The translations under genes and the position numbers were made by a program. DNA of 64,000 nucleotides from Paraconexibacter algicola. GTDB lineage: Bacteria; Actinomycetota; Thermoleophilia; Solirubrobacterales; Solirubrobacteraceae. The notes under the pieces are model-generated. The model did not search any database. It was not told the DNA's origin and saw only the letters and a list, made by a program, of their open reading frames with translations. This document shows positions 38,293 through 60,789 of this stretch, in pieces; the first letter of the stretch is position 1, and each line of letters starts with the position of its first letter. The stretch covers positions 1,880,978 through 1,944,977 of the forward strand of contig NZ_PYYB01000001.1 of the NCBI RefSeq assembly GCF_003044185.1. The letters are read 5' to 3'.

Positions 38293-39042
38293 GTGCCCCG
38301 CCCGACCGTCCCCCATCGCCTGCTGACCCTCGGCGCCGCCTGCGGCGCGAGCTTCGCGCTCGCCGCCGGCGCGGCGCTCGCGCTCGACGCGGACCTGCCC
38401 GGATCGGGGCCGGACACCACGCCGACCGCGACGGCCGCGGCGGCGAAGAAGCCTGCCGCGGGGCGCGGGCCGAAGGGCCCACGGGGCCTGCGCGGCCTGA
38501 CGGGCCGGCGCGGCCCGCAGGGCGCGCGCGGGGCGACCGGGGAGACCGGTGTCGGCGGCGCGCAGGGGCCCGCGGGGCGCGATGCGATCGTGCTGCAGCC
38601 GATCTCGATCAACTGGCAGAACGGCCAGTCCACCGGCCGCGACCGCGCGACCTTCACGGCGCCGGGCATCGGGCAGGGCCAGGTGATCTGCTCGCGCGAC
38701 GCGCAGATGATCACCTTCCGCCGCTACGACCAGCGCAACGACGTCGCCCTGTGGACCGCGAAGGTCTTCGACCGCTCCGACGGCCAGAGCGTCTTCGACG
38801 TCAAGCGTGGCCTCCTCACCCAGTTCACGGGCGAGGAGGTCAACGAGGGCTTCAACCTCACCGCCGGCGCGCTCCGGGGCGACGGCGCCTACCGGGGGAT
38901 CATCGCCAGCCACGGCGACCGCTCCGGCCCGGGGGGGGCGGGCCCGGCCCCGACCGCCTTCCACCTGACCTTCCACTGGCGCTTCGGCGACCAGTTCGGC
39001 GACCGCTGCTACGTCGCCGGCTCCTTCACCACCGAGAGGTGA
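38293..39042 (+). CDS. Secreted collagen-like protein, paralogue 1
   Basis: 249 residues from GTG 38293, which directly precedes a signal-peptide-like stretch ('LLTLGAACGASFALAAGAALALDA'). A Lys/Ala-rich linker leads to 13 uninterrupted Gly-X-Y triplets (59-97, GPK GPR GLR GLT ... GPA GRD) and a C-terminal beta domain of ~150 residues with two cysteines ('VICSRDAQ', 'DRCYVAGSF'). Short collagen-like stalks with a beta head form trimers at the cell surface in other bacteria. It is 2 bp upstream of its paralogue. A -35-like TTGACT (38247-38252) with GACAGT 17 bp later may be the promoter. Confidence 0.82.
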   Translation: MPRPTVPHRLLTLGAACGASFALAAGAALALDADLPGSGPDTTPTATAAAAKKPAAGRGPKGPRGLRGLTGRRGPQGARGATGETGVGGAQGPAGRDAIVLQPISINWQNGQSTGRDRATFTAPGIGQGQVICSRDAQMITFRRYDQRNDVALWTAKVFDRSDGQSVFDVKRGLLTQFTGEEVNEGFNLTAGALRGDGAYRGIIASHGDRSGPGGAGPAPTAFHLTFHWRFGDQFGDRCYVAGSFTTER

Positions 39043-39044
39043 CC

Positions 39045-39764
39045 ATGACGTCCCGCCGCACGCTCCTGCTCGCCACCGTCCTCAGCGCCGTCCTCGGCGT
39101 GCTCGCCGTCGGCGCGGTCTCGGGCGCGGTCACGGGGGGCTCGTCCTCGTCGTCGTCCTCCTCGGGCTCGGAGCGGCCGACCGCGTCCGCCGCCGCGACG
39201 AAGAAGAAGACGAGCTCGCGGCGCGGCCCGCGCGGCCCGCGCGGTCCCCGGGGCCTGCGCGGACGGACCGGCCCGCGCGGCGCCACCGGGCTCGTCGGCC
39301 CGCAGGGCGCGCCGGGCGCGCAGGGGCCGCAGGGCCCGGCCGCGGTCGAGGTCGCGCGGTCGCTGACCGTCAACTGGACGCAGAACCGCTTCGCGGGCCG
39401 GGAGAGCGCGTCGGCGACGCTGCCCTCGGTCGGCCGGGTCGACGTCGTCTGCACCGACGCCGAGCAGGTCCTGCAGCTCACGCCCGCCCGGGGCGACCAG
39501 CGCACGGCGCTGGGCCTGCAGCGCTTCGAGGGCACGACCGGCAGCCACCAGCAGCTGCTGTCGACCGGGCCCGCGGACCCGATCCGGGTGACGCTGCCGC
39601 CCAACGGCATGCTCACCGGGACGATCAGCCTGCAGCCGGTCGCGGGGGACGGCGGCGCGGGTCCGGCGCCGGCGACCTTCACGCTCTCCTCGGCGTACGT
39701 GGTCAACGACGGCGCCAACAACAGCTGCCACGTCGCCGCGCAGATCCTCGCCGCCGGTAGCTGA
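39045..39764 (+). CDS. Secreted collagen-like protein, paralogue 2
   Basis: 239 residues. Signal or anchor helix (~6-30), a poly-Ser tract (33-40), a Lys-rich linker, 13 Gly-X-Y triplets (61-99, GPR GPR GPR GLR ... GPQ GPA), and a C-terminal beta domain with two cysteines ('VVCTDAEQ', 'NSCHVAAQ'). It has the same triplet number and head layout as the preceding gene ('SINWQNGQSTGR' versus 'TVNWTQNRFAGR'), so the pair arose by tandem duplication. They may form homo- or heterotrimers on the cell surface (inference). Confidence 0.82.
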   Translation: MTSRRTLLLATVLSAVLGVLAVGAVSGAVTGGSSSSSSSSGSERPTASAAATKKKTSSRRGPRGPRGPRGLRGRTGPRGATGLVGPQGAPGAQGPQGPAAVEVARSLTVNWTQNRFAGRESASATLPSVGRVDVVCTDAEQVLQLTPARGDQRTALGLQRFEGTTGSHQQLLSTGPADPIRVTLPPNGMLTGTISLQPVAGDGGAGPAPATFTLSSAYVVNDGANNSCHVAAQILAAGS

Positions 39765-46738: not shown

Positions 46739-48665
46739 GAAGGCGGCCGTCGCTCCGGGCAGTCTTCCGTCCGTGCCCTGGGGCAGGACACGCCATCTCG
46801 CCGTTCCCGTCGCGCTCGCCGCAGGACTCGGCGCGCCCGCGGACGCCGTCGCCGTCCCGGTGGGCGTCGATCTCGCGCGCCCCGACGGCGACGCGCTGCG
46901 CCTCGTCGGAGACCGCGGCGACAGCGCCGCGTACACCGTCGCCCCCGCCGGTGACGTCAACGGCGACGGGGTCGGCGACCTCGTGCTCGGCGCCCCGTAC
47001 GCCGACTACAACCGCCGGCGCGACAGCGGCTCGGTCTACGTCGTCTACGGGCGGCGCCCGTTCGACGGCGTCGACCTCCACTTCCTCGAGACGCGCGGTG
47101 GTGGGTTCCGGATCGACGGCATCGCCGCCGGCGAGCGGTTCGGCACCGCGGTGGCGGGCGGACGGGATCTCGACGGGGACGGCTTCGGCGACATCGTCGT
47201 CGGCGCGCCGAACGCCACGTTCCTCGGTCGTCGCGAGGCCGGCGTCGCCTACGTCGTCTACGGGGGGCCGCGCAACGGCGCGGTCGACCTCGCGAACGCC
47301 CCACTGGACGCCTACGACGTGATCGGCGGTCGCTCGCCGCAGGACCACACCGGCCGCAGCGCCGCGCTGACCGCGGACGCCACCGGCGACGCGGTGCCCG
47401 ACGTGCTGCTCGGCGCGCCCGACGCGGACAGCCGCGTGCCCGGCGCCACGACCGCGAACACGCGCACCGGCTCCGCCTACCTCGTCACGGGCCGGCGCGC
47501 CCGGCGCGGCGTCCCCGTGGACCTCGCCGCCGCCCCGGGCGACGTCCGCCAGCTCGACGGCTCGGTCACCTCCGAGCGGGTCGGGGCGAGCGTCGCCGAC
47601 GCCGGGGACGTGAACGGCGACGGCACCGGGGACCTCCTGCTCGGGGCGCCGACCGCCGACCGCAACGACCGGGTCGACAGCGGCAGCGCCTACGTCGTCT
47701 TCGGACGCGACGAGCGGTCGGTCCTCAGCCTCAGCCTGCTCACCCCGTCGCTCGGCTATCGCGTCGACGGCGCGTCGACCGGCGCCCGCCTCGGCCAGGC
47801 GGTCGCGGGGCTCGGCGACATGAACGGGGACCGCCGCGCCGACGCGATCCTGGGCAGTCCGGGGGCCGCCGTCGGCACGCGCCGCAGCGCCGGCCGGGCG
47901 ACCGTCGTCTACGGGCAGACCGCCCGGCTGCGCCTCGACGCCCGCGCGCTCGGGACGGCGGGGTTCTCGATCCTGGGTGCGGCGGCGGGCGACGCGGCGG
48001 GCGCCGCGGTGGCGGGCGCGGGGGACGCGAACGCCGACGGGCTGGCCGACGTGGTCGTCGGCGCCTACGACGCGGACAACAACTGTCGCGGCGGCTCGGG
48101 CTCGGCCTACGTCGTGTACGGCAAGTTCGGCCGCGCGCCCGTCTACCTCTCCCGGCTGCAGCCCGCGCGCGGGTACCGCGTCGACGGCGCTCGTCCCGGG
48201 GACCGGCTGGGCTGGTCGGTCGGCAACGCCACCGGGTTCGCCGGGCCGGGGCCGGTCGTGATCGCGGGCTCGTACTCGGTGAACGCGCCGCGGCCGTTCG
48301 CCGGTGCCGCCTACGCGCTGCGCCGCGGCGTGCGGAAGACCGCCTCGGGTCGCTACGCGACCCGCCTGCCGCTGCGGGTGCTGCGCCGCCCGGGTGGTCG
48401 CGCGCGCGACTACGAGGGCTTCCTGTCGATCCCGGTCGAGGCGACGGCCGGTCCGATCCGCGACGTCTACGCGGCGGTCTACACCTTCGGCGGCCGCCGG
48501 ATCGGCAGCACGAGCGTCCCGCGGCTCGCCGGGCGCCGTCAGCTCGACCTGCGCCTGCGCGAGCGGCTGCGTGGCGGCGGCTACACGGTCGTGGTCAGCG
48601 GTCAGCCCGATCCGGCCCGCTACTGCGGGCGGAAATCCCGCGAGCTCGTGCTGAGGTTCCGCTGA
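46737..48665 (+). CDS. Secreted FG-GAP/integrin-alpha-type beta-propeller protein
   Basis: 642 residues. An export signal follows the N-terminus ('HLAVPVALAAGLGAPADAVA'). Six or seven ~65-residue blades each carry a calcium-loop motif DxxGDGxxDxxxGAP: 'DVNGDGVGDLVLGAP', 'DLDGDGFGDIVVGAP', 'DATGDAVPDVLLGAP', 'DVNGDGTGDLLLGAP', 'DMNGDRRADAILGSP' and 'DANADGLADVVVGAY'. The blades with all acidic residues should bind Ca2+; the fifth has lost one Asp/Gly pair. A C-terminal beta domain (~530-642) has no recognised name. GTG 46773, just before the hydrophobic core of the signal, is an alternative start. Probably an extracellular adhesin or glycan-binding protein. Confidence 0.88.
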   Translation: MKAAVAPGSLPSVPWGRTRHLAVPVALAAGLGAPADAVAVPVGVDLARPDGDALRLVGDRGDSAAYTVAPAGDVNGDGVGDLVLGAPYADYNRRRDSGSVYVVYGRRPFDGVDLHFLETRGGGFRIDGIAAGERFGTAVAGGRDLDGDGFGDIVVGAPNATFLGRREAGVAYVVYGGPRNGAVDLANAPLDAYDVIGGRSPQDHTGRSAALTADATGDAVPDVLLGAPDADSRVPGATTANTRTGSAYLVTGRRARRGVPVDLAAAPGDVRQLDGSVTSERVGASVADAGDVNGDGTGDLLLGAPTADRNDRVDSGSAYVVFGRDERSVLSLSLLTPSLGYRVDGASTGARLGQAVAGLGDMNGDRRADAILGSPGAAVGTRRSAGRATVVYGQTARLRLDARALGTAGFSILGAAAGDAAGAAVAGAGDANADGLADVVVGAYDADNNCRGGSGSAYVVYGKFGRAPVYLSRLQPARGYRVDGARPGDRLGWSVGNATGFAGPGPVVIAGSYSVNAPRPFAGAAYALRRGVRKTASGRYATRLPLRVLRRPGGRARDYEGFLSIPVEATAGPIRDVYAAVYTFGGRRIGSTSVPRLAGRRQLDLRLRERLRGGGYTVVVSGQPDPARYCGRKSRELVLRFR

Positions 48666-48845: not shown

Positions 48846-49709
48846 ATGCCGGGCGCTGAACGCGACATCACCTCCACCCTGAGCGAGCTCGAGCGCAAGC
48901 TCGAGGATCTCGAGAGCGAGCTGGCCGCGGCCGGCGAGCCCGTGGTCCCGCCGCCCCCGACGCCGGCCGCGGTCACCCCGCCGCCCGCGGTCGCCCCGTC
49001 GGTCCCGAACGGCTCGTTGGACGACCTGCGCGCGCAGCTCGCCGAGCTCGAGCGGTTCCGCGACTCGCTCGAGTCCTCGACGCGCGCGCTGATCGACGAG
49101 TACCGCCTGCTGCTGGCGCAGCGCCCGGCGCCGACCCCGGCACCGGTCCTGACGACGCCGAGCGACCTGCCGCCGATCGGTGGCGGCTGGTCGCCCAGCG
49201 CGCCCGTACCGACCACGCCGGTCGTCCCGCCGGCGCCGCCCACGCCGCCGGTGTCGACCATCGTGCCGCTGCCGACGCCGGAGCCGGCCGTCCCGCCGGC
49301 CCCGCCGCCGCTCGCACCGGTCGTCCCGGAGCCCGCCGACCCGGTCGCCCACATCCCGGCGCCGGCGCCGCCCGCCTCGGTCCTGCCGCCGTCGTTCTCC
49401 CCGCCGCCCGGTGACGCCGTCGCGGCCGATCCGACGGTCCAGGGCCAGCTGACGCTCGACGCCGGGCCGTTCGCGGACATCGCGACGCTCAGCAGCTTCG
49501 AACAGGCGCTCGGCCGCCTCCCGGGCGCGCAGGACGTCTACGTGAAGGGCTTCGAGGGCAACCGCGCCCTCATCGACCTGCAGCTGGCCGGACCGATCGC
49601 GCTCGCCACGCGGCTGCGCGAGGTCTCGCCGCTCCCGGTCACCGTCCGCGAGCCCGCCCCGGGCGCCGCGCGCATCCAGGTCGACGTCGAGGAGATGACC
49701 GGTGCCTGA
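48846..49709 (+). CDS. Coiled-coil, proline-rich protein with C-terminal alpha/beta domain; first gene of envelope-glycan operon
   Basis: 287 residues. Two short coiled coils ('ISELERKLEDLESELAAAG'-like region ~8-29 and 'LDDLRAQLAELERFRDSLESS' ~58-78) frame Pro/Ala-rich linkers. A very Pro-rich stretch covers ~95-195, and a ~80-residue alpha/beta domain ends the protein ('FADIATLSSFEQALGRLPGAQDVYVKGFEGNRA', a beta-alpha-beta-beta pattern like small ferredoxin-like folds). No signal peptide or membrane helix is present, so it is probably cytoplasmic and a scaffold for the following membrane proteins. It overlaps the next gene by 8 bp. Confidence 0.8.
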   Translation: MPGAERDITSTLSELERKLEDLESELAAAGEPVVPPPPTPAAVTPPPAVAPSVPNGSLDDLRAQLAELERFRDSLESSTRALIDEYRLLLAQRPAPTPAPVLTTPSDLPPIGGGWSPSAPVPTTPVVPPAPPTPPVSTIVPLPTPEPAVPPAPPPLAPVVPEPADPVAHIPAPAPPASVLPPSFSPPPGDAVAADPTVQGQLTLDAGPFADIATLSSFEQALGRLPGAQDVYVKGFEGNRALIDLQLAGPIALATRLREVSPLPVTVREPAPGAARIQVDVEEMTGA

Positions 49710-50052
49710 CCAGCAGCAGGAGGAGAAGTACCGCCCGCTCGCGCTCATCGCCGTCGTGATCGCCGCGCTGCTGCTGTTCGCGGTCTTCTTCCTCGCGTTC
49801 CTCGTCGCCCCGCTGGCGATCCTCGCGCTCTTCTACATCCTCTTCGCCGCCTCCGACCGGTCCAAGCGCGCCGGCAGCGGGCCGCCGCCCACCCCGGGCA
49901 CGCCCACGGACCCGGCCGTGGAGGAGGCGCGCCTCAACCAGGAGCGCCTCGACCGCGAGGCGTCCTCGCGCCGCTCCACGATGGAGGGCCAGGACCGCGA
50001 GGCCGGCCGCGCCGCCGAGCGCCTGACGACACGCCCCGGGGCCGGGTCTTGA
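49702..50052 (+). CDS. Small two-helix membrane protein of the envelope-glycan operon
   Basis: 116 residues from GTG 49702. A short polar head ('PDQQQEEKYRP'), a long hydrophobic hairpin ('LALIAVVIAALLLFAVFFLAF', 'APLAILALFYILFAA') and a charged, helical tail. No family recognised. Its start overlaps the preceding gene by 8 bp and its stop is 1 bp before the next start, so it is tightly coupled. Possibly anchors the coiled-coil protein to the membrane near the glycosyltransferase (inference). Confidence 0.78.
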   Translation: MPDQQQEEKYRPLALIAVVIAALLLFAVFFLAFLVAPLAILALFYILFAASDRSKRAGSGPPPTPGTPTDPAVEEARLNQERLDREASSRRSTMEGQDREAGRAAERLTTRPGAGS

Positions 50053-50053
50053 C

Positions 50054-50347
50054 GTGGACGACGCTCTCGGCATCGCGCTCGCGGCGAACCTGCCGTACAC
50101 GGGCCTGCGCGGCTTCGACGTCGACGCCCGGCTGTGGCGCTACGTCCCGCTGCAGCTCGCGCTCAAGGAGCGCGTCGTCCCGCTCACGCTCGTCGCGGAC
50201 GAGCTCAAGGTCGCCGCGGCGCACGCCGATCCCGACCTCTCCGCGCTTCGCACCCACTTCCCCAACCTCCGGATCGGCGTCGTGATCGCCCCCGCCGCAG
50301 AGATCGACGCCGCGCTCGCCCGCGTTCAAGGACCGCAAGACGCATGA
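50054..50347 (+). CDS. Stand-alone GspE_N-like half domain
   Basis: 97 residues from GTG 50054. Pattern 'FDVDARLWRYVPLQLALKERVVPLTLVADELKVAAAHADPDLSALRTHFP' (key landmarks: 'VPLQLA', 'VVPL', 'LKVAAA', 'IAPAAEIDAAL') matches the C-terminal half of MshEN/GspE_N modules. It lines up with residues ~206-283 of the next protein ('IPEPLARHLRCVPIAVDDTTLYLAVAD'). It lacks the RLG cyclic-di-GMP motifs. ATGA overlap with the glycosyltransferase gene. It may complement or modulate the module of that enzyme (inference). Confidence 0.75.
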   Translation: MDDALGIALAANLPYTGLRGFDVDARLWRYVPLQLALKERVVPLTLVADELKVAAAHADPDLSALRTHFPNLRIGVVIAPAAEIDAALARVQGPQDA

Positions 50348-52641
50348 ACCCTCCGTCCGCAACCGAACCCAGCCGCCGCTTCTACCGGCAGCTCGCGACC
50401 CACGCGGGTCTCGAGTTCGTCGTGCTCGACCCGGCCGACTCGGGCACGCCCGAGCACCGGGCGGTCAACCCGCTGGCCGCACGGATGCTCTCCGAGCAGA
50501 TCTGCCGGCACTTCACGATCCTCCCGATCAGCTACGCGGGCGGCACCGTCACGATCGCGACCTCCACGCCGGCCGACGACGTCGCCCGTGACGTCGCGCA
50601 GTCGCTCACCGGTCGCGACGTCGCGTTCGTCGTCGCCCCCGAGGAGGAGCTGCAGCGCGCGATCGACGAGACGTTCGTGCAGTGGCCCGCGGGCATGGGG
50701 CCCGAGGGCGGCGCCGCCGGTTCCTGGGAGGGCTCGACCGAGGCGGACGCGGACACGCGCGTCACCGACCCCGCGTTCCCGACCCGCCTGGGCGACCTGC
50801 TGGTGGCGCGCGGCATCGCGACGGACGAGCAGATCGCGGGCGCCCTGGCCGAGCAGGCCCGCACCGGCAGCCGCCTCGGCGAGGTGCTCGTCCACAGCGG
50901 CATCATCACCGAGCCGGAGCTCGTCGCGATCCTCGCCGAGCAGTTCCAGCTGCCGCTCGTCGACCTGTCCGAGTACGACCCGGACCCGGCCGCGCTCGCG
51001 CTCATCCCCGAGCCGCTCGCGCGCCACCTGCGCTGCGTGCCGATCGCGGTCGACGACACGACCCTGTACCTCGCGGTCGCCGACGTCCTCGACGACGACA
51101 CCGTCTCGGCGCTGCGCGAGCACACCCACCTGGAGCTGCGCGGCTTCCTTGCCTCCCGCAACTCGATCGACGAGCTGCTGCAGCGCGTCAACGGCGGCGA
51201 GTACGTCTCGGTCGCGAAGTCCGAGCTGCTCGAGCGGTTCCCGGAGGAGTGCGCCAACCGCGTCCTCAGCTCCGCGCAGAAGGTCTTCTTCATCGCGCTG
51301 GCCGTCGTGATCGTCGTGCTCGCCGTGATCTTCCCGAAGGTCACGATCATCACGCTGATCGGCCTCGCGTCGATCTTCTACCTGGCGACCTCGCTCTACA
51401 AGTTCGTCCTGACGTACAACGCGCTCGGGCACACCTACGAGATCGACGTGACGCAGGAGGAGCTCGACGCGATCGACGAGCGCGACCTGCCGGTCTACAC
51501 AATCCTCGTCCCGCTCTATCGCGAGGCCGCGGTCCTCCCGCGCCTGGTCGACGGCATCGGCGGCCTCGACTACCCGAAGACGAAGCTCGACGTGCGGCTG
51601 CTCTGCGAGGAGGACGACGACGAGACCGTCCCGGCCATCCGCGCCATGAACCTGCCGCCGCACTTCAAGCTCGTCGTCGTCCCCGACGCGCAGCCGAAGA
51701 CGAAGCCGAAGGCGTGCAACTACGGGCTGCTGCAGGCCGACGGCAAGTACGTCGTCATCTTCGACGCCGAGGACCGGCCCGACCCGGACCAGCTGAAGAA
51801 GATCGTCGTCGCGTTCGACAAGGCGGACCCGCGCGTCACCTGCATCCAGGCGAAGCTCAACTACTTCAACTCCGACCAGAACCTCCTGACCCGGTGGTTC
51901 ACGACGGAGTACTCGATGCACTTCGACCTGCTGCTCCCCGGCCTCGACGCGCAGGGCGTGCCGATCCCGCTGGGCGGCACCTCCAACCACTTCGTCACCG
52001 ACCGGCTGATCGACCTCGCCGCGTGGGACCCGTTCAACGTCACCGAGGACGCCGACCTGGGCATCCGCCTCCACAAGGCGGGCTTCAAGACGGCGATGAT
52101 CGACTCCACCACGCTGGAGGAGGCGAACTCCGACCTCAACAACTGGATCCGCCAGCGGTCGCGCTGGATCAAGGGCTACATCCAGACGTGGCTCGTGCAC
52201 ATGCGCAACCCGCCGCGGCTCCTGCGCCAGATCGGGCTGAAGAGCTTCATCAGCTTCCAGCTCGTCGTCGGCGGCACGTTCATCTTCCTGCTGAACCCGA
52301 TCTTCTGGGCGCTGACGACCGTGTTCTTCTTCACGGAGGCGGGCTTCATCCAGGAACTGTTCCCGAGCTTCGTGTTCTACGCCGCGGCGTTCATGCTGTT
52401 CATCGGGAACTTCGTGTTCATGTACCTGAACGTCGCCGGCTCGGTCCAGCGCGGGTACTTCGACCTCGCCAAGTACGCCCTCCTGTCCCCGCTGTACTGG
52501 GGCCTCATGTCGATCGCGGCGTGGAAGGGCTTCCTGCAGCTGTTCTACCGGCCCTTCTACTGGGAGAAGACGGTGCACGGACTCGACGCGGGCCACGAGA
52601 GCCCCGCGCCGGTGACGACGTCCGCGCCGCCGACCCGCTGA
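50344..52641 (+). CDS. Family-2 glycosyltransferase with N-terminal MshEN cyclic-di-GMP-binding module
   Basis: 765 residues. Residues 1-~110 are a GspE_N-like alpha/beta region. Residues 148-171 and 177-200 are two 24-residue RLGxxL..G......L...L..Q motifs separated by five residues (ARTGS), the arrangement defined for MshEN c-di-GMP binders. Residues ~206-283 complete the module. Two helices follow (~312-358). The GT-A core contains 'YTILVPLYREAAVLPRL', D474-A-E-D477, 'GGTSNHF' (544-550), E568-D-A-D571 and Q604-R-S-R-W608 (QxxRW), i.e. a processive-type GT2 as in cellulose or PNAG synthases. Four or five C-terminal helices form the likely channel. It probably polymerises and exports a polysaccharide under c-di-GMP control, comparable to NfrB, which has the same two parts in other order. 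Confidence 0.92.
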   Translation: MNPPSATEPSRRFYRQLATHAGLEFVVLDPADSGTPEHRAVNPLAARMLSEQICRHFTILPISYAGGTVTIATSTPADDVARDVAQSLTGRDVAFVVAPEEELQRAIDETFVQWPAGMGPEGGAAGSWEGSTEADADTRVTDPAFPTRLGDLLVARGIATDEQIAGALAEQARTGSRLGEVLVHSGIITEPELVAILAEQFQLPLVDLSEYDPDPAALALIPEPLARHLRCVPIAVDDTTLYLAVADVLDDDTVSALREHTHLELRGFLASRNSIDELLQRVNGGEYVSVAKSELLERFPEECANRVLSSAQKVFFIALAVVIVVLAVIFPKVTIITLIGLASIFYLATSLYKFVLTYNALGHTYEIDVTQEELDAIDERDLPVYTILVPLYREAAVLPRLVDGIGGLDYPKTKLDVRLLCEEDDDETVPAIRAMNLPPHFKLVVVPDAQPKTKPKACNYGLLQADGKYVVIFDAEDRPDPDQLKKIVVAFDKADPRVTCIQAKLNYFNSDQNLLTRWFTTEYSMHFDLLLPGLDAQGVPIPLGGTSNHFVTDRLIDLAAWDPFNVTEDADLGIRLHKAGFKTAMIDSTTLEEANSDLNNWIRQRSRWIKGYIQTWLVHMRNPPRLLRQIGLKSFISFQLVVGGTFIFLLNPIFWALTTVFFFTEAGFIQELFPSFVFYAAAFMLFIGNFVFMYLNVAGSVQRGYFDLAKYALLSPLYWGLMSIAAWKGFLQLFYRPFYWEKTVHGLDAGHESPAPVTTSAPPTR

Positions 52642-52645
52642 GACC

Positions 52646-54424
52646 ATGAGCACCGTCCTGAACCCCCCGCCCGGCGGCACCCCGCCGTCCAACCCCGCTG
52701 CGCACGGGCACCGCTCCGGCACCGTCCTGGACGACGCCCCGCGCGGCCCGCAGGTCGCGATGCCGGGCGCCCTGGTGTCCTTCGGGCTGTTCCTCGCGCT
52801 CGCGGTCGTCTACTTCCTGATCGGCTACAAGATCACGATCGACCAGCACGTCATCGTGTTCGACGCGCTGGACCGCCTGACGCGCGCGTACCTGGTCTGG
52901 CACAACGACCCGCCGAAGCTCGCCGCGATCGGCTTCGTGTTCGCGCCGCTGACGACGTTCGCGATGCTGCCGTTCGCGCTCGTGAAGCCGCTCGCGACCT
53001 CGCTGATCGCGCTGCCGCTGATGAGCGCCGTGTTCGCCGCGGGCACGATCGTCATCCTCGACCGCACGCTCGCGCGCTGCGACATGAACGCGATCCTGCG
53101 GCTGCCGCTGCTCGCGCTCTTCGCGTTCAACCCGTTCTGGGTCTTCTACGCCGGCAACGGCATGAGCGAGGTCATCTACGCCTTCTTCCTCGCGTTCAGC
53201 CTCTACTGCTTCGTGTCCTGGTACGCGACGACCGAGCCGCGCTTCCTCATCGGCGCCGGCTTCGGCATCGCGGTCCTCGTGCTCACCCGGTACGCGTTCA
53301 TCGTCTGGGCCGTCCTGCTCGCCGTGCTCATCGCCGTCGCGCTCGTGCGACGCCGCGCGAGCAAGATCGAGGTCGAGGGCTCCGTGATCGCGTTCGCCGC
53401 GCCCGTCGTCTACGTGCTGGCGCTGTGGATCCTCTTCAACACGCTCATCGTCGGCGACCCGTTCGGCTGGATCACGAGCACGACGACCTCGACGCAGGCC
53501 GTCAACGCGACCGGCATCGACACCACCGGCGACCTGACGTTCAACGAGATCGCCCGGCGGCTGCTGGAGCTGAACGTCACGGTCTTCCCGCTCGCGTTCG
53601 TCGTCGTCCCTGCGCTCGTCCTGACGTTCGTCGCGCAGCGCAACGACATGGCCCTGTGGCTCGCGTCGTTCGTCGTCCTGGGCATCGTGATCATGGGCGG
53701 CAACGCCTACATCAACGACCAGGAGGGCCTGCTGACGCTGCGCGACTCGATGCCCATGTACGTCGCCGCGTTCGTCGGTGCCGCCTGGGTCTTCCGCAGC
53801 TTCGAGACGGCCCGGGTCGGCGTCTGGGCGGCGACCGTCGCGCTGCTGGTGATCAACCTGTTCACGGCCTGGAGCGGGATGCAGAGCTATCCGTTCCAGT
53901 CGCTGGAGCAGGCGTTCGTCCGCGCGGTGAAGACCGGCGACGACCAGACCGGGGTCGCGTCGCGCGGCGGCTTCCGCGGGGGCGTGCTCTCCGAGGCGCA
54001 GATGGCCGGGTACATCAACCGCAACGTCACGCGCAACAACGCGATCCTGACGGACAACGCGAAGACCTTCGGCGTGATCATCCTCAGCGGCCGTCCGCAG
54101 CTGTTCTTCGACCGCATCGACAAGGGCGACACGCGCTTCCGCCAGGTGCTCGACAACCCGTGGGGCACGGTCGACTACGTGCTGCTGACGATCAACCCGA
54201 GCTCGGGCGACCTGGTCCAGCAGAAGTACCCGCGCGCCAACGACGGCCTCGTGCGCGGCCTGACCGCCGTCGCCCGCACCGAGCGGTACCTGCTGCTCCG
54301 GGTCGCGCGCACCGACCCGGCCCGGCGCCGGACCGCCGCGCGCACGCCGGCGACCGCAGGCGGCACCGCCGCGACGCCCGCCGCCACGCCGACCCCGACG
54401 CCCACCCCGACCGCGACCCCGTGA
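52646..54424 (+). CDS. GT-C-like polytopic membrane protein, possible lipid-linked-sugar glycosyltransferase
   Basis: 592 residues. About 11 membrane helices from residue ~40 to ~410, with a polar first loop ('DQHVIVFDALDRLTRAYLVWHNDPPK'), then a soluble domain ('NRNVTRNNAILTDNAKTFGVIILSG', 'FDRIDKGDTRFRQVLDN', 'VDYVLLTINP') and a Thr/Pro-rich tail. The helix-rich N-terminal part with a periplasmic C-terminal domain is typical of GT-C enzymes (PMT/ArnT-like), but the catalytic acidic pair is not clear. Starts 4 bp after the GT2 gene. It may decorate the glycan or attach it to a carrier (inference). Confidence 0.8.
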   Translation: MSTVLNPPPGGTPPSNPAAHGHRSGTVLDDAPRGPQVAMPGALVSFGLFLALAVVYFLIGYKITIDQHVIVFDALDRLTRAYLVWHNDPPKLAAIGFVFAPLTTFAMLPFALVKPLATSLIALPLMSAVFAAGTIVILDRTLARCDMNAILRLPLLALFAFNPFWVFYAGNGMSEVIYAFFLAFSLYCFVSWYATTEPRFLIGAGFGIAVLVLTRYAFIVWAVLLAVLIAVALVRRRASKIEVEGSVIAFAAPVVYVLALWILFNTLIVGDPFGWITSTTTSTQAVNATGIDTTGDLTFNEIARRLLELNVTVFPLAFVVVPALVLTFVAQRNDMALWLASFVVLGIVIMGGNAYINDQEGLLTLRDSMPMYVAAFVGAAWVFRSFETARVGVWAATVALLVINLFTAWSGMQSYPFQSLEQAFVRAVKTGDDQTGVASRGGFRGGVLSEAQMAGYINRNVTRNNAILTDNAKTFGVIILSGRPQLFFDRIDKGDTRFRQVLDNPWGTVDYVLLTINPSSGDLVQQKYPRANDGLVRGLTAVARTERYLLLRVARTDPARRRTAARTPATAGGTAATPAATPTPTPTPTATP

Positions 54425-55224
54425 CGATGGTCCACGATCCGTCCACCCCCGCCTCCCCCGAGGGCGACGACCTCGCCGCCGCGGTCAACGCGCGCGTCGC
54501 GGCGATCCTCGCGGACGCCGAGGCGCGCGCCCGAGAGCTCCAGGCCGAGGTCGAGGCCGAGACCGCCCGCCGGGCCGTCACCGTCCGCCTCGACGCCGAG
54601 GAGGACGCGACCGCGATCCTCCAGGAGGCCGAGCACGAGGCCGCCCGCTACCTGGAGGAGGCGCGGCGCCGCGTCGACCGCTTCGCCCAGGGCCGCATCC
54701 AGCGGCTGACGTCGATCGCCGACGACCTCGCCGCCCGAGCGGGCGAGCTGCAGCTGCGCCTCGACCAGACGCTCGAGGTCAAGGCCGAGCTCGACGAGCT
54801 CGTCGAGACGCTCCGCTCCGCCGCCGCGGATGCTGCCGCCGAGGCCGCCCGGCCGATGCCGACGCTGCCCGGCCTGACCTCCGACGAGCTCGGTCGGGCC
54901 GTCGCGCCGCGCCGCCCCGACCCCGCCCCGGCCGACGCGCCGCCCGCGGCCGCGCCATCGCCCGCGGCTGCCGCGCCGGCGCCCTCGCCGACCGAGCCCG
55001 CCGCGGCACCCGCGCGGCCCGCCCTGCGCCCCGTGACCGCGACCCCCGCCGCGCCGCCGGCCCGGCCGCTCAGCCCCGAGGCCGAGGCCGTCCGCGCCCG
55101 GATCCGGGACGCAGCCCGCGCCCTGCCCGAGACCTCCCCGACGCCGGACCGTGCCGCCGCCCCGGAGCGGAAGCCGCGCCCGGCCATTCCCGTCCGTCCG
55201 CCACTGCCGAAGGACGATGCCTGA
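54421..55224 (+). CDS. DivIVA-like coiled-coil protein with proline/alanine-rich tail
   Basis: 267 residues from GTG 54421, forming a GTGA overlap with the membrane protein (ATG 54427 is an alternative). Residues ~15-140 form one long coiled coil ('AEARARELQAEVEAETARRA', 'AARYLEEARRRVDRFAQGR'), similar in style to DivIVA/Wag31 and polar scaffolds. Residues ~145-267 are Pro/Ala-rich and disordered. It could position the glycosyltransferases at a cell site. The next gene overlaps it as TGATG. Confidence 0.8.
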   Translation: MTMVHDPSTPASPEGDDLAAAVNARVAAILADAEARARELQAEVEAETARRAVTVRLDAEEDATAILQEAEHEAARYLEEARRRVDRFAQGRIQRLTSIADDLAARAGELQLRLDQTLEVKAELDELVETLRSAAADAAAEAARPMPTLPGLTSDELGRAVAPRRPDPAPADAPPAAAPSPAAAAPAPSPTEPAAAPARPALRPVTATPAAPPARPLSPEAEAVRARIRDAARALPETSPTPDRAAAPERKPRPAIPVRPPLPKDDA

Positions 55225-56753
55225 TGCGTGTCGCCCGTCTGACGATGATCGCCGCGACCGCCGCCCTCCTCGGCGGCTGCGGGGCGGTCGCCAACGAAGA
55301 CCAGAACTCCGACATCTCGACCAGCACGACGCGGACCACCGCGACGACGCCCCGGACGACCACCACCCCCGAGGGCGCCCGCACACGCCGCGACTCGGCC
55401 AACGACGAGGGCGGCCAGAAGGTCGTCGGCGGACCGGGTTCCCCGGCGGTGACCGGGGCGACCGGCGCCGACACCGCGACGGTGCCCTCGACGCAGCAGG
55501 GCGTCCCGGCGGGCGGTGTCGCCGCGGCCGGGACGGTCGGCAGCAGCACCGGCGCCGCGCTGGCGCTCCGCCCGTTCTCCTCGAACTCGCCGTGGAACAC
55601 CGCGGTGGAGAACGCCGCGATCGACCGGCGCTCGCGTCAGTGGATCACGGGCGCGCAGCAGCGGCTCGGCGTGGTCGAGCAGGCAGGACGGGCGCCGCGG
55701 CGCGAGCGCCGCACGATCAACGCGGGCCTCTTCATCAACACACGCCGCTGGACCGTTCCGGTCGTCGACGAGGAGGGCGCGGTCCCGACCCGTGTCGTCT
55801 GCCGTCAGCTGCCGCCCTACTGCGGTGACGGCGCGCGGGTCACGTCGCTGCTCGTGCCGGCCGACGAGTCGCCCCTGCCGCAGTACGACGGCTGGTTCAC
55901 GGTCATCAACCGCAGCGAGGGCGTCGCCTACGACCTCTGGCGGGCGCGTCGCGGCCGCAACGGCAACGTCATCAGCTACCAGTTCATGCGCAAGTGGGAT
56001 CTCAACGGTCCGGGCTTCCAGGAGCCCAACACCGTCTCCGCCCGCGGTTCCGGCCTGCCGCTGTTCGCGGGCCTGATCCAACCCGAGGAGATCCAGGCCG
56101 GCCGCATCGAGCACGCGCTCGCGATCTCCCTCCCGGGCCCCGCGCAGCGCAACTACGTGCAGCCCGCATCGTCGACCGACGGCGTCGGGCAGCTCAGCTC
56201 GATTCCCGAAGGCGCCCGGATCAAGCTGCGCTCCTCCGTCACCCTCGCGTCCCTCAACCGCCGGGTCGACGCGCGGTGCGACGACCCCGCGTTCGGGCTC
56301 ACCGCCCGGGACGACGGCACGGTCGACCGGTCCGTCCGTCGGAGCGCCTGCACGCCCTACCGCTTCCCGGGACGGACCAACCGCAAGGCGGCCGAGGCGT
56401 TGATCTCCGCCCTCAAGCGGTATGGCGCGATCGTCGTGGACCGCTCCCGCGTGCCCACGCTCTACGCGAAGCTCAACTACGACTGGAGCCAGCCGCTGCG
56501 CGACCCGCAGGGCCGGCTGCTGGACGGCAACGGCCGCGCTCTCACGCAGGCGCAGTTGAACGCCTCGGGCGACGTCTCCACCCCGCTCCTTCGCGGCAAC
56601 GAGATCGAGGGCCTCAAGGTCTCCGACTTCGAGGTCGTGGAGGTCCGCGGCAACATCCTCAAGTTCCCCGCCCTGAACAGCGTCACGGCGCAGTCCAGCC
56701 AGGGCCAGACCCGCAACCCGAACGGCCAGACGTTCACCCCGGGAATCCCATGA
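55224..56753 (+). CDS. Lipoprotein of an uncharacterised secreted family
   Basis: 509 residues. Signal peptide with lipobox 'LLGGC' (C19), a Thr-rich linker (~30-110), then a globular domain of ~380 residues. The domain resembles a family of bacterial secreted proteins seen only as 'hypothetical': landmarks 'SSNSPWNTAVE', 'QYDGWFTVIN', 'VAYDLWRAR', 'FAGLIQPEEIQAGRIEHALAIS', 'EALISALKRYGAIVVDRS', and 'VSDFEVVEV' near the end. The combination 'GxIxHAL...ALKRYG' suggests one conserved active cleft, but the activity is unknown. Envelope-anchored by lipid; ATGA overlap with the next lipoprotein. A role in processing the glycan made by this operon is possible. Confidence 0.82.
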   Translation: MRVARLTMIAATAALLGGCGAVANEDQNSDISTSTTRTTATTPRTTTTPEGARTRRDSANDEGGQKVVGGPGSPAVTGATGADTATVPSTQQGVPAGGVAAAGTVGSSTGAALALRPFSSNSPWNTAVENAAIDRRSRQWITGAQQRLGVVEQAGRAPRRERRTINAGLFINTRRWTVPVVDEEGAVPTRVVCRQLPPYCGDGARVTSLLVPADESPLPQYDGWFTVINRSEGVAYDLWRARRGRNGNVISYQFMRKWDLNGPGFQEPNTVSARGSGLPLFAGLIQPEEIQAGRIEHALAISLPGPAQRNYVQPASSTDGVGQLSSIPEGARIKLRSSVTLASLNRRVDARCDDPAFGLTARDDGTVDRSVRRSACTPYRFPGRTNRKAAEALISALKRYGAIVVDRSRVPTLYAKLNYDWSQPLRDPQGRLLDGNGRALTQAQLNASGDVSTPLLRGNEIEGLKVSDFEVVEVRGNILKFPALNSVTAQSSQGQTRNPNGQTFTPGIP

Positions 56754-58495
56754 GCCGACGACTGACCACCTCCTGGATCGCGATCGCCGCCTGCGGCGTG
56801 CTCGTCGCCGGCTGCGGCGTGGACACCAACGACGCCGGAGACGTCTCGACGTCCCCGACCGTCCAGTCGCCGTCCTCCCGCGGGGCGACGACCGGCGCGA
56901 GCAGCGCCGAGCAGCAGCGGCGCCTCGAGGCGCGGCTGCCCAAGCGACCGAGTGGCACCGTCGCGATCGACGGGCGCACGCAGGACTCGCTGACCCGTCA
57001 GGGAGCGGTCAGCTACCGCGGCCAGGGCGGGACGTCGCGCCTGACGTTCAGCGGTTCGACCGAGGACCGCGCCTACCAGAACCTCTGCTCGGGACGGGTC
57101 GACGCGATCGAGGTGACGACGCTGCCCTCGCAGGGCATCATCGACCTCTGCGCGGCTCGTGGCATCAAGCTGGTCAACCCGCTCCAGCTCGCGTCGGACG
57201 CGATCGTCCTCGCGACGAAGAACGAGTCCGACGTCGGCGGCGACTGCATCACGGTCAAGCAGGCCAACGACATCTACCGCGCCGGCTCGACGATCAGCAA
57301 CTGGTCCCAGCTCGGCTTCGACGACCTGCCGCTGCGCGCGACCGGCCGCGAGGCCGACAGCGACGTGTTCCAGTTCTTCGGCCAGCTGGTGCTCAACCGG
57401 GTCGACGCGTCCCTCGCCGACGTTCGCAGCGACTACATCGTGCACGCCTCCGACCCGCGCGAGCGGCGTGAGGTCACCAACGCGACGCGGATCGCGGCCG
57501 TCGCCGGGCGCGTCAGTCGGTACCGGGCGCGTCTGCGCGCCCGCACGATCACGACGCGGCGCGCCTACGTCGCACGCGCCGAGCGCGCGGCCGACCGGCG
57601 CATCCTCGCCGAGATCCGCCGGGTCAACGAGCGCAACCGCCGCCTGAAGATCACGGTCGATGCGCAGGCGCTCGAAGCCCGCAACCGTCGGCTCGTGGAG
57701 CTCGCGAAGCGTCGCGCCCGCGCCCGGGCCAACGCAGCGTACGACGCCCGCCTGGAGCTGCAGGTCCGGCGCTACCGCACCGAGCAGCTCGCGCAGGCGG
57801 ACAGTGCCGGGACCGTCGGTGCCTTCCGGTTCAGCTACTACGAGCTGTTCGAGGAGGAGCTGCGGCCCCTGGAGGTCGACTTCGGTGTCCCCGAGACGGA
57901 GAGCGGTCAGCCGGTCCGCGTTGGTGATCTGCGTGACGCCGACCAGCGACGCCTGCGTGCCGGGACGACCGGTCCGACCGGTCCGACCGGCAGCACGGGC
58001 GCGTCGGGCGCCGCGGCGATCGACCCGCAGACCCCGCTCAGCGGTGACGCGTCGCTGCCCCGGACGGACCGCAACGGCAAGACGATCTATCCAGGCCCCG
58101 GCTGCGTCTTCCCGGCGCAGACGACGATCACCACGGGCGTCTACCCGTTGACCCAGCGGCTGTTCGTCGTCACCTCGGAGCTGGCGCTGCGTCGGCGCGA
58201 GGTGCGGACCTTCCTGGACTACCTCGTCAGCCAGTCCCGGACGCTCGCGACCGAGAACCGGCTCGTCCCGATCACCGATCAGCAGCTGTCGGACGAGCTG
58301 CTCACGATCAGGGGCACGCGGCCGTCCGAGCAGGAGGTCGCGGGCACCGAGGTCGAGCAGTCCGCGGACGAGGGCTCGTCGACCGTCACCGTCCCGGGGG
58401 GGCAGTCGCCGCCGGCGACGACCACGCCCGCCACGCCGCCGCCGGCCACGGGGACGGACTCGGGGATCCCGGGCGTCTCCTCGCGCGGCGGCTGA
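56750..58495 (+). CDS. PstS-like substrate-binding lipoprotein interrupted by a coiled coil
   Basis: 581 residues. Lipobox 'LVAGC' (C22). Residues ~67-236 match the first part of a PstS-type binding protein ('TFSGSTEDRAYQNLCSGRVDAIEVT', 'DAIVLATKNES', 'ITVKQANDIYRAGSTISNWSQL', 'ADSDVFQFFGQLVL'). Residues ~237-352 are an Arg-rich helical coiled coil where PstS has only a short loop. Residues ~353-380 resume the fold ('GTVGAFRFSYYELFEEELRPLEVDFG', compare PstS 'GYFGYAYY'). Residues ~400-425 are collagen-like ('GTTGPTGPTGSTGASG'), and ~444-520 complete the binding protein ('GVYPLTQRLFVVTS'). No ABC permease or ATPase is adjacent, so transport is doubtful and a binding or structural role is likelier. 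Confidence 0.82.
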   Translation: MSRRLTTSWIAIAACGVLVAGCGVDTNDAGDVSTSPTVQSPSSRGATTGASSAEQQRRLEARLPKRPSGTVAIDGRTQDSLTRQGAVSYRGQGGTSRLTFSGSTEDRAYQNLCSGRVDAIEVTTLPSQGIIDLCAARGIKLVNPLQLASDAIVLATKNESDVGGDCITVKQANDIYRAGSTISNWSQLGFDDLPLRATGREADSDVFQFFGQLVLNRVDASLADVRSDYIVHASDPRERREVTNATRIAAVAGRVSRYRARLRARTITTRRAYVARAERAADRRILAEIRRVNERNRRLKITVDAQALEARNRRLVELAKRRARARANAAYDARLELQVRRYRTEQLAQADSAGTVGAFRFSYYELFEEELRPLEVDFGVPETESGQPVRVGDLRDADQRRLRAGTTGPTGPTGSTGASGAAAIDPQTPLSGDASLPRTDRNGKTIYPGPGCVFPAQTTITTGVYPLTQRLFVVTSELALRRREVRTFLDYLVSQSRTLATENRLVPITDQQLSDELLTIRGTRPSEQEVAGTEVEQSADEGSSTVTVPGGQSPPATTTPATPPPATGTDSGIPGVSSRGG

Positions 58496-58599: not shown

Positions 58600-60789
58600 C
58601 TAGGCCGGATCGCCGGGGCCGGCGGCGCGGACCTGGCGCTTGAGGCGCTCGATCCGCGCGGCGAGCTCATCCAATGACGCCGCGGAGCCGCTGTCGGCCG
58701 CTTCGGCCCTGGGGCTCGCGGTCGCCGTGCGCGGGCCGGGCTGCGCGCCGGGCGCGGAAGGCTCCACGTGCGGCGCCGGACCGACGAGCCCGCCTGCGTC
58801 GGGACGACCCATGACGGGACCGTGCTCGGCGCCGACCAGCGGGACGGCGACGGCTGCGGAGCCCGCGTCGGTCGGGGTCGGTGGGGTCGTGGTCGCGGCC
58901 ACCTGCCGCACCGCGGTCAGCTGCCCGCGCAGGTCCCCGGCGATGACGCTGACGCGACGCAGCAGCACGTCGCGGCGCTCGATCTCCTGCTCGAGGTCGT
59001 CGCAGCGCTGCCGGCTCTCGTCGGCCGCGCGGCGCGACGCCTCGATCTCTCCGCGCAGCTGCTCGGTGAGGCGCCGGATCGTGTCCCGGTCGGTCTCGGC
59101 GGCGATACGGGCGCGCTCCTCGCTGCCCACCTGCTGCTCGAGCTCGTGGACGCGCCGCTGCAGCCGCGAGCGCTCGCGGTCGAGCTCGGTGCGCAGTCCC
59201 GCGGTGGTGTCGCGCAGCTCGATGCGCAGCGTCTCGATCCGGGCCTGCAGGTCGGTCTGGAGCTGCGTGCGCAGCTCGCGCTCGGCGGCCAGGGCGGCGG
59301 CGCTCTGCGTCTCGATCGCGACGATCTGCTGCTCGAGCTCCTGGCGACGCTGCGCGTGCGCGCTGCGCTCGGCCTCGAGCGCCTGGCGGCCCTGCTGCTC
59401 GGCGGCGCGCAGCCGCTCCTCGAACGCGGTGCGCTCGAGCTGCAGCCGGGCGTCCGCGGCGCCGCGCTGGACCCGCTCGCGCTCGAGCTCCTGCTGGGAG
59501 GCGGCGATGCCGACCTGGGCCTCGGCGAGCTGTCGCTGCGCGCTGACGAGCGCGTCCTGCTGCGCCCGGGCCTCCGCGCGCAGCCGGTCGAGCTCCTCCT
59601 GCCGGACGCGGACCCCGTCCTCGGCCCGGGCGACCCGGGCGTCCGCCTCCTCGGCGCGCCGGACCGCCTCGATCCGCGCGGCGACCGCGTCGCGCAGCTC
59701 ACCGGTCCGGGCGAGGTCGGCGGACCGCTGCTGGCCGGCGAGCCGCTCCCGGTCCGCGCGCTCGGCCGCGAGCAGGGCCCGCGCACCGTCGAGCTCCCGC
59801 TCGAGCGCCGCGATCCGCGCGTCGCGCTCGGCCACGACGCGCTGCGCCTCGACGGTCGCCCGGTCACGCTCGGCGGCGGCCCGGTCACGCTCGGCGGTCG
59901 CCTGCCGCGCGGCCTCGTCGGCCCGGGTGCGGTCGCCCTCCGCGCGCTCGGCGCGCGCGGTCAGGTCGGCCGCGAGCGTCTCGAGCGCGTCGAGCTGCGC
60001 GGCGACCCGCTCGGTCTCCTGCGCGAACCGGGAGGCCGTCGCGGCGCTCTGCGCGCGGTGCTCGTCGAGGTCCGCCGCATGACGGGCCCGCAGCTCGTCG
60101 ATCTGCGCGGTCAGGCCGGCGACGCGCTCGTCGCTGCCGGCCTCGAGCTCCTCGCGCGTCGTCTCGTGCGCTGCGCGCTCGGCCTCCAGCTGCGCTGCGG
60201 CCTCGACCGCGGCGGCGTGGGCCTGGGCCTTCCGCGCTTCGAGCTCGGCGGCGATCGCGACCGCGGCCTCGCGCTCGGCCTCGAGCTGCCCGACGAGCTC
60301 GCGGACGGTCTCCTCGCGGTCGGCGCGCTCGTGCTCGAGCTCGGTGGTCGTCGCGTCGAGGTCGGCGAGGACCGTCTCGATGTCCGCCGTCAGCTCCCGC
60401 ACGCGCTGCTCGAGCTCCACCGTCCGGGCCTGCTCGGCCTCGAGCTCGTCGACGACGCGCTCGTGCTGGGTGCGGAGCCCGTCGAGCTCGGCGTCGCGGT
60501 CCGCGCGCAGCCGCTCGATCTCGGCGAGGTGCTCGTGGCGCTCGCCGTCGACCTCGGCGCGCAGCGCCGCCACCGCGGCGCGGGCGGCGGTGACCTGCGC
60601 CGTCACGTCGTCGACGTCGCTCGCGGGCGGGGACGCCGCGGACGCCGCACGTGCCGTGGGCGGTGGGGCGGGAGCGGCCGGCGCGCCGCCGCCGATCAGC
60701 TGCTCGGCCCGCGCCCGCAGCTGCTGCAGGCGCGCCAGGGAGGCGTCGACCGACGGCGGGGGCGACGAGACGTGATCGGTCGAGGGCAT
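58600..60789 (-). CDS. Large coiled-coil protein (729 residues)
   Basis: After a Pro/Ala-rich N-terminal section (~30-60), residues ~65-620 are an almost continuous coiled coil rich in Glu/Arg/Ala/Leu ('ERLRADRDAELDGLRTQHERV', 'LEQQVGSEERARIAAETDRD'), then a disordered Pro/Gly linker and a short C-terminal helix ('LDELAARIERLKRQVRAAG'). No transmembrane segment, ATPase head or hinge, so it is not SMC. ATG 60789 is chosen over 60822 because a TACGCT -10 lies 10 nt upstream. It faces the glycan operon tail to tail. A filament-forming cytoskeletal or scaffold protein is plausible. Confidence 0.85.
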   Translation of the reverse strand: MPSTDHVSSPPPSVDASLARLQQLRARAEQLIGGGAPAAPAPPPTARAASAASPPASDVDDVTAQVTAARAAVAALRAEVDGERHEHLAEIERLRADRDAELDGLRTQHERVVDELEAEQARTVELEQRVRELTADIETVLADLDATTTELEHERADREETVRELVGQLEAEREAAVAIAAELEARKAQAHAAAVEAAAQLEAERAAHETTREELEAGSDERVAGLTAQIDELRARHAADLDEHRAQSAATASRFAQETERVAAQLDALETLAADLTARAERAEGDRTRADEAARQATAERDRAAAERDRATVEAQRVVAERDARIAALERELDGARALLAAERADRERLAGQQRSADLARTGELRDAVAARIEAVRRAEEADARVARAEDGVRVRQEELDRLRAEARAQQDALVSAQRQLAEAQVGIAASQQELERERVQRGAADARLQLERTAFEERLRAAEQQGRQALEAERSAHAQRRQELEQQIVAIETQSAAALAAERELRTQLQTDLQARIETLRIELRDTTAGLRTELDRERSRLQRRVHELEQQVGSEERARIAAETDRDTIRRLTEQLRGEIEASRRAADESRQRCDDLEQEIERRDVLLRRVSVIAGDLRGQLTAVRQVAATTTPPTPTDAGSAAVAVPLVGAEHGPVMGRPDAGGLVGPAPHVEPSAPGAQPGPRTATASPRAEAADSGSAASLDELAARIERLKRQVRAAGPGDPA

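What the first reader, a model, noticed from the sequence alone, without database searches (positions are those of the whole stretch)
48846..58495. Candidate undescribed system: c-di-GMP-responsive envelope-glycan machine with scaffold and lipoproteins
Seen: eight same-strand genes with overlaps or gaps of at most 4 bp. They encode a coiled-coil/Pro-rich protein, a two-helix membrane protein, a GspE_N-like half domain, an MshEN-GT2 enzyme, a GT-C-like membrane protein, a DivIVA-like coiled coil, and two lipoproteins. Known: MshEN binds c-di-GMP, and GT2 enzymes with QxxRW polymerise and export glycans. Inference: a monoderm-type polysaccharide synthase gated by c-di-GMP, held at a cell site by coiled-coil scaffolds, with surface lipoproteins that bind or process the product. 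I know of no named system with this gene set.
Basis: partly seen in the sequence, partly recalled or inferred. Interest (0 to 1): 0.82.

Follow-up and report, generated by a model that had tools for sequence, protein, structure and literature searches.

The report
Conserved c-di-GMP-gated cell-surface glycan machine
A block of eight neighbouring genes, plus two secreted collagen-like protein genes nearby, forms an undescribed but widely inherited machine in soil actinobacteria that probably spins a surface sugar polymer on command from the signal molecule c-di-GMP, decorates it outside the cell and holds it with lipoproteins.

Summary
In detail: eight tightly packed + strand genes (48846-58495). 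g4 is a GT2 synthase with the processive-GT motifs and an MshEN receptor carrying both 24-residue c-di-GMP motifs intact. g5 has the GT-C fold (AlphaFold pLDDT 87.5; best match ArnT, Z 22). g7 is an unknown lipoprotein; g8 a PstS-like one.

g5-(g6)-g7-g8, with g4 before it wherever the contig reaches, recurs in 17 further actinobacterial loci, including Nocardioides. A g1-domain/g2/g4/g5 core reaches Chloroflexota, where BcsB (cellulose-synthase partner) and a GGDEF protein can follow. Bacillota relatives place GtrA/ArnC-like genes beside g5.

I add a secreted family, g9: two collagen-like genes at 38308-39764. In 396 surveyed genomes g9 occurs in exactly the five with full-length g7.

Best reading: a monoderm synthase-dependent exopolysaccharide system, switched by c-di-GMP, its polymer glycosylated outside by g5, with g7/g8 in the place of BcsB and g9 as matrix protein. 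It resembles Listeria Pss and B. subtilis Yda in logic but fails membership in Bcs, Pga, NfrB and Pss. The c-di-GMP site is eroded in Nocardioides. Product and g7/g9 function remain unknown. New variant of a known kind.

The parts
48846..49709 (+). g1: N-terminal coiled coil, Pro-rich linker, C-terminal ~90-aa alpha/beta domain (weakly HMA/ferredoxin-like)
   Evidence: No Pfam match. An actinobacteria-only HMM of the C-terminal domain finds proteins in the same upstream position in Chloroflexota (E 2e-11 to 2e-6). PDB profile search only reaches a copper-binding HMA protein at E 0.4.
49702..50052 (+). g2: small membrane protein with one long hydrophobic stretch (helical hairpin)
   Evidence: Sequence; a hydrophobic protein of roughly 75-115 aa sits directly upstream of g4 (or of g3-g4) in the actinobacterial and most Chloroflexota loci; Bacillota have a 71-93 aa coiled-coil protein there.
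50054..50347 (+). g3: stand-alone MshEN_C-type domain without the c-di-GMP motif
   Evidence: PF05157 45.7 bits; no 24-residue motif; present in L022, L023, L037 only.
50344..52641 (+). g4: MshEN-GT2 synthase (aa 39-111 MshEN_C-like; 148-200 c-di-GMP motif pair; 201-285 MshEN_C; GT2 ~385-611; C-terminal membrane part)
   Evidence: PF05157 118.5 bits, PF13641 88.8 bits; NF053729 63.8 bits; both 24-residue motifs 7/7 key residues; DAED, TED, QxxRW conserved.
52646..54424 (+). g5: GT-C fold glycosyltransferase with an acidic residue at Asp73 in the first loop after TM1
   Evidence: AF2 pLDDT 87.5, pTM 0.87; the 12 Foldseek hits at E<=1e-3 are GT-C enzymes or complexes containing one; VIA Z 22.2 to ArnT; Asp/Glu in 37/37 homologues.
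54427..55224 (+). g6: cytoplasmic coiled-coil protein with Pro/Ala-rich tail
   Evidence: No family match; a coiled-coil gene occupies the same slot in Nocardioides and Svornostia; absent in Patulibacter.
55224..56753 (+). g7: lipoprotein (lipobox ...LLGGC) with a conserved globular domain of unknown fold
   Evidence: Cys19 nearly invariant; no Pfam or PDB match; AF2 model poor, pLDDT 52.6; full-length family in 5 of 396 phylum genomes.
56750..58495 (+). g8: lipoprotein, PstS-like periplasmic-binding fold with a long Arg/Ala-rich insertion
   Evidence: PF12849 40.8 bits; TIGR02136 52.9 bits against a cut-off of 206.6; PDB 4jwo E 8e-18, aligned in two pieces around the insertion; Cys22 invariant.
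38308..39042 (+). g9a: secreted protein with collagen-like Gly-X-Y stalk and g9 domain
   Evidence: 48% identity to L085 gene next to g8; A3 profile hits only 5 of 396 genomes, the same five as full-length g7.
39045..39764 (+). g9b: second secreted collagen-like g9-family protein
   Evidence: 51% identity to L085 6347-7096; collagen-adhesin-like repeats.

Best explanation
This is a synthase-dependent exopolysaccharide system of a monoderm bacterium. Cellular c-di-GMP (13 GGDEF matches in the genome) binds the MshEN motif pair of g4 and activates the GT2 domain, which polymerises a sugar nucleotide and extrudes the chain through its own membrane part, as BcsA, PgaC and NfrB do. On the outer face, g5 (GT-C) adds side-chain sugars from a polyprenyl-phosphate donor, as in three-component glycosylation. 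g1, g2, g3 and g6 are cytoplasmic or membrane accessory subunits that assemble or position the synthase. The lipoproteins g7 and g8 receive, bind or trim the chain in the place that BcsB holds in related loci. The secreted collagen-like g9 proteins are the matrix proteins that associate with the polymer. Shown here: domains, motifs, the g5 fold, gene-order conservation, g7/g9 co-distribution. Inferred: c-di-GMP activation, polymer identity, side-chain role, scaffold role, g7/g8/g9 roles.
For: c-di-GMP motif pair intact with the 5-residue spacer of the published motif (PMC5013675). Processive GT2 motifs. GT-C fold of g5 and, in relatives, g5 next to an ArnC-like polyprenyl-P transferase and GtrA (L061, L060, L063) or next to a second GT2 and a flippase-like gene (L053), the layout of characterised three-component systems (PMC11127046). 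BcsB at 140-169 bits in Chloroflexota and Paenibacillaceae relatives and a GGDEF protein downstream. GH5 cellulase-family gene directly upstream in Nocardioides. g5-(g6)-g7-g8 order in 17 further loci. g7 and g9 in the same 5 of 396 genomes. 13 GGDEF matches and no BcsB in the own genome.
Against: No product is known and no step has been assayed. c-di-GMP motifs are degraded in Nocardioides (4/7 key residues in each motif) although the rest of the cassette is kept. The window has no GtrA/GtrB-type gene in the cluster; two GtrA-family genes lie elsewhere. g4 is only 22-27% identical to BcsA, PgaC and NfrB over the GT domain. g7 has no fold or family. The g7/g9 co-distribution rests on five genomes of one order, so it is not phylogenetically independent.
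Confidence: 0.6

Rival explanations
1. A cell-envelope (wall-polymer or glycolipid) glycosylation pathway rather than an exopolysaccharide: g4 is a non-processive GT2 making a lipid-linked sugar, and g5 transfers it to a wall polymer or to the lipoproteins themselves.
For: GT-C enzymes of arabinan and LTA/WTA glycosylation share the g5 fold (AftA, AftB, EmbB). Lipoproteins are encoded directly downstream.
Against: g4 has QxxRW, TED and a long C-terminal membrane part and matches synthase models (CelA, PgaC, PRK15489) better than DPM-type models. Where a dedicated polyprenyl-P synthase is wanted, relatives carry a separate ArnC-like GT2 beside g5. BcsB beside relatives implies a translocating polymer.
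Confidence: 0.2
2. A protein-matrix export/assembly system in which the glycan is secondary: g5 glycosylates g9, and g7/g8 anchor collagen-like fibres.
For: g9 is inherited with g7 even when unlinked, 1.86 Mb apart in G017. Collagen-like stalks are typical of surface adhesins. g5 resembles protein O-mannosyltransferases (Pmt4) as well as ArnT.
Against: Collagen repeats were found in only 4 of 12 g9 members. g4-g5 pairs occur without g9 in many phyla.
Confidence: 0.12
3. A constitutive, c-di-GMP-independent synthase: the MshEN parts are now structural only.
For: Degenerate motifs in Nocardioides and one lost position per motif in Patulibacter; g3 and the N-terminal domain of g4 are MshEN_C parts without the motif.
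Against: Both motifs are intact in the window, L037 and L023, and motif I in L022 and L024; the genome has 13 GGDEF matches.
Confidence: 0.15

Closest known systems
Listeria monocytogenes PssA-E and B. subtilis YdaJKLMN exopolysaccharide operons
   Same: Monoderm, GT2 synthase, c-di-GMP-controlled, BcsB-type partner in our Chloroflexota and Paenibacillaceae relatives and a membrane GGDEF protein beside Chloroflexota g4; YdaM/YdaN/YdaK cluster at cell poles (PMC4125290; PMC7064775).
   Different: Their c-di-GMP receptor is a separate GGDEF-type protein (PssE/YdaK); here it is an MshEN domain inside the synthase. The window genome has no BcsB; GT-C, g7, g8 and g9 are not among the Pss/Yda parts named in the passages read.
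NfrB/NfrA (E. coli)
   Same: GT2 plus MshEN in one polypeptide, c-di-GMP-activated exopolysaccharide (PMC8669469).
   Different: Reverse domain order (GT2 N-terminal, MshEN C-terminal), outer-membrane partner NfrA, 22% identity over the GT domain; far below the NfrB model cut-off (57.5 of 1170 bits).
BcsA-BcsB cellulose synthase
   Same: Processive GT2 with the same motifs; BcsB found beside relatives; a GH5 gene in Nocardioides mirrors the endoglucanase that accompanies cellulose operons.
   Different: No PilZ domain match, no BcsB in the genome, 27% identity; CelA model 60.9 of 699 bits.
Three-component extracytoplasmic glycosylation systems (GtrA/GtrB/GT-C; GT136 pathway)
   Same: GT-C enzyme next to a polyprenyl-P synthase and GtrA or a flippase in relatives.
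   Different: In the window only the GT-C member is in the cluster.

Membership tests
MshEN c-di-GMP receptors | Two 24-residue RLGxx... motifs separated by 5 residues, then MshEN_C | tested here: met
   g4 aa 148-171 and 177-200, 7/7 key residues each, followed by PF05157 201-285.
MshEN c-di-GMP receptors | Measured c-di-GMP binding | not testable with these tools
   Needs ITC or DRaCALA.
Processive GT2 synthases | DxD, TED, QxxRW | tested here: met
   DAED, TED, QRSRW in the window protein; TED/QxxRW in nearly all homologues.
NfrB equivalog | NF008411 above cut-off 1170 | tested here: not met
   57.5 bits.
Cellulose synthase BcsA | TIGR03030 above cut-off 699, PilZ domain | tested here: not met
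   60.9 bits, no PilZ match.
PNAG synthase PgaC/IcaA | TIGR03937 above cut-off 422 | tested here: not met
   52.2 bits.
Pss/Yda or Bcs system | BcsB subunit in the genome | tested here: not met
   PF03170 absent from the own genome, found in E. coli and B. subtilis controls.
GT-C superfamily (g5) | GT-C fold and acidic residue in the first extracytoplasmic loop | tested here: met
   Z 22.2 to ArnT, top rows GT-C enzymes or relatives; Asp73 acidic in 37/37.
Three-component side-chain system | Polyprenyl-P sugar synthase and flippase co-encoded with the GT-C | tested here: inconclusive
   Co-encoded in Bacillota relatives and partly in L053; not in the window cluster, though two GtrA-family genes lie elsewhere in the genome.
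PstS phosphate-binding proteins (g8) | TIGR02136 above cut-off 206.6 and GSST phosphate loop | tested here: not met
   52.9 bits; the loop reads DGRTQDSLT where 4jwo has DGSSTVFPI.
DivIVA (g6) | Match to a DivIVA family model | tested here: not met
   No such match in Pfam or NCBIfam.

The most novel reading that the evidence does not exclude
A dedicated glycoprotein-glycan matrix machine of monoderm actinobacteria: a c-di-GMP-gated synthase whose nascent chain is handed to two new lipoproteins (functional replacements of BcsB) and woven with co-inherited collagen-like proteins (g9), the whole unit having moved horizontally into Nocardioides, where it lost c-di-GMP control.
Probability: 0.25. 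Interest if true: 0.8.

Novelty: new variant of a known kind. Interest (0 to 1): 0.62.

Why it matters
c-di-GMP-controlled surface polymers are well understood in diderms but poorly in actinobacteria and Chloroflexota. This cassette links an MshEN-gated synthase, an extracytoplasmic GT-C, lipoproteins of unknown fold and collagen-like matrix proteins into one testable unit, present in cultured strains (Patulibacter americanus and P. minatonensis, Svornostia abyssi, several Nocardioides). It poses a concrete question: how a monoderm receives a growing glycan without BcsB and an outer membrane. It also gives two uncharacterised protein families (g7, g9) a context.

Tried and rejected
AlphaFold of g7 gave pLDDT 52.6, so no fold search was made with it. 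Pfam, NCBIfam and PDB searches gave nothing for g7 and only collagen repeats for g9. No riboswitch or other Rfam match upstream of g1 or in the window; no sigma-70-like promoter above chance. DivIVA for g6 rejected. GspE/pilus role for g3/g4 rejected: no ATPase domain, and GT2 instead. Literature searches for MshEN with cellulose synthase, BcsB with Chloroflexi, Nocardioides cellulose synthase and actinobacterial MshEN glycosyltransferases found no paper describing this gene set; the library excludes most subscription journals, so prior description cannot be ruled out. The GT tree places E. coli BcsA, PgaC and NfrB on saturated branches, so their exact position is not informative.
Full report
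OBSERVATION. The window lies in a 4.74 Mb genome of the order Solirubrobacterales (handle G000, C1:1880978-1944977; nearest named relatives). The eight genes are real, co-directional and nearly contiguous: g1 48846-49709, g2 49702-50052, g3 50054-50347, g4 50344-52641, g5 52646-54424, g6 54427-55224, g7 55224-56753, g8 56750-58495. The one slip is an 8-bp overlap between g1 and g2.

THE SYNTHASE. g4 carries an MshEN_C-like part (aa 39-111), the c-di-GMP motif pair (aa 148-171 RLGDLLVARGIATDEQIAGALAEQ and aa 177-200 RLGEVLVHSGIITEPELVAILAEQ, spacer of 5), a second MshEN_C (201-285) and a GT2 domain with DAED, TED and QRSRW. The motif agrees in every key position with the one solved in MshE (PMC5013675). 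g3 is a separate MshEN_C domain without the motif. The genome has 13 GGDEF matches, so the ligand is probably made. Across relatives the motif is intact in L037 and L023 and, for motif I, in L022, L035 and L024; one key position is lost per motif in Patulibacter; it is clearly degraded in Nocardioides. c-di-GMP gating is therefore well founded for the window but is not a fixed property of the family.

THE GT-C PARTNER. g5 was modelled with 37 homologues (pLDDT 87.5, pTM 0.87). The twelve Foldseek hits below 1e-3 are STT3/OST, ArnT, DPY19, AglB, ALG12, PglB and Pmt4 entries, and VIA-align gives Z 22.2 over 408 residues to undecaprenyl-phosphate-bound ArnT. The residue expected to be catalytic in the first loop, Asp73, is acidic in all 37. 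Bacillota relatives encode an ArnC/PgfS-like GT2 and GtrA (fused in L060) next to g5. A Solirubrobacteraceae MAG has a second GT2 and a flippase-like gene (no Pfam match) between g4 and g5. This is the layout of three-component extracytoplasmic glycosylation (PMC11127046). I infer that g5 decorates the polymer.

CONSERVATION. tblastn and gene calling over loci from whole genomes and genome contigs give g5-(g6)-g7-g8 on one strand in 17 further loci of Solirubrobacterales/Patulibacter, Svornostia and four Nocardioides, with g4 in front wherever the contig reaches far enough. In the GT tree Nocardioides sits inside the Solirubrobacterales group, next to Svornostia (support 97/95), which suggests horizontal transfer. 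Beyond Actinomycetota, a g1-type domain protein, a small hydrophobic protein (g2 position), g4 and g5 recur in Chloroflexota. There g4 often has further MshEN parts, and BcsB (165-169 bits in the two tested) and, in the one locus tested, a GGDEF protein follow. One Paenibacillaceae locus also has BcsB. The window's own genome has no BcsB, so g7 and g8 stand where BcsB would be. Nocardioides has a GH5 cellulase-family gene directly upstream.

A FURTHER COMPONENT. In most actinobacterial loci that extend far enough, a secreted protein of an undescribed family (g9) lies close downstream of g8. The window has two copies 9-10 kb upstream of g1, at 38308-39042 and 39045-39764, both with collagen-like repeats. 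A survey of 396 genomes of the phylum found full-length g7 in G000, G011, G017, G053 and G059 and g9 in exactly those five, although in G017 the g9 gene is 1.86 Mb from the cassette. Nine other sampled genomes of the same order, one of the same genus, lack both (Fisher p = 5e-4 within the order; not corrected for phylogeny). Long-form g4 is in four of the five; in G053 the contig ends inside g5 and no g4 was found elsewhere in that assembly of about 440 contigs.

LIPOPROTEINS. Both have lipoboxes. g7 has no detectable relative with known fold, and its model was too poor to use. Weaker g7-like hits occur more widely in the phylum. g8 is a PstS-type fold with a long inserted Arg/Ala-rich segment; the phosphate loop is altered, so phosphate transport is unlikely, and no PstABC genes are in the cluster.

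MECHANISM. c-di-GMP binds g4; the GT2 polymerises and extrudes a glycan; g5 adds side groups outside; g7 and g8 capture or process the chain; g9 joins it in the matrix; g1, g2, g3 and g6 assemble or place the complex. The first step is supported by an intact binding motif, the third by fold and gene context. The rest is inference. The B. subtilis Yda synthase, also c-di-GMP-controlled, clusters at cell poles (PMC7064775), which makes a positioning role for the coiled coils plausible but unproven.

KNOWN OR NEW. Membership in BcsA, PgaC and NfrB families fails on curated cut-offs, and Pss/Yda fails on the missing BcsB. Papers held describe MshEN fused to glycosyltransferases (PMC5013675) and NfrB (PMC8669469), but none found describes this cassette. 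I file it as a new variant of synthase-dependent, c-di-GMP-regulated exopolysaccharide systems.

Noticed in passing
window 46737-48665 (+): FG-GAP repeat secreted protein 180 bp upstream of g1, same strand; its C-terminal domain matches a secreted protein just downstream of g8 in L023 (9315-10109; phmmer 9e-26). It may be a further surface component.
   Followed up: partly
window 39817-40215 (+): Response regulator beside the g9 pair; L085 also has a response-regulator gene beside its g9 pair, directly downstream of g8.
   Followed up: partly
window 58603-60822 (-): 740-aa coiled-coil protein directly downstream of g8 on the opposite strand; L023 has another coiled-coil protein after g8 (8330-9352). 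No family beyond SMC-like coil scores.
   Followed up: no
own genome C1:1353995-1354546: A second, weaker g7-like gene (60 bits) away from the cassette.
   Followed up: no
L096 (Mycolicibacterium litorale) 8950-14112: GT2 relative without MshEN, followed by a 666-aa secreted protein without a family match and a g5 GT-C homologue: possibly a mycobacterial version of the core.
   Followed up: partly
L053 1-17544: MAG contig with two g4-g5 pairs, one with a DUF2334 gene upstream (PF10096, 152 bits) and a GT2 plus flippase-like gene between g4 and g5.
   Followed up: partly
L049 8503-12483, L073 8212-12210 and other Chloroflexota g4: Roughly 1,300-aa versions of g4 with repeated MshEN-like parts before the GT2 domain.
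   Followed up: partly
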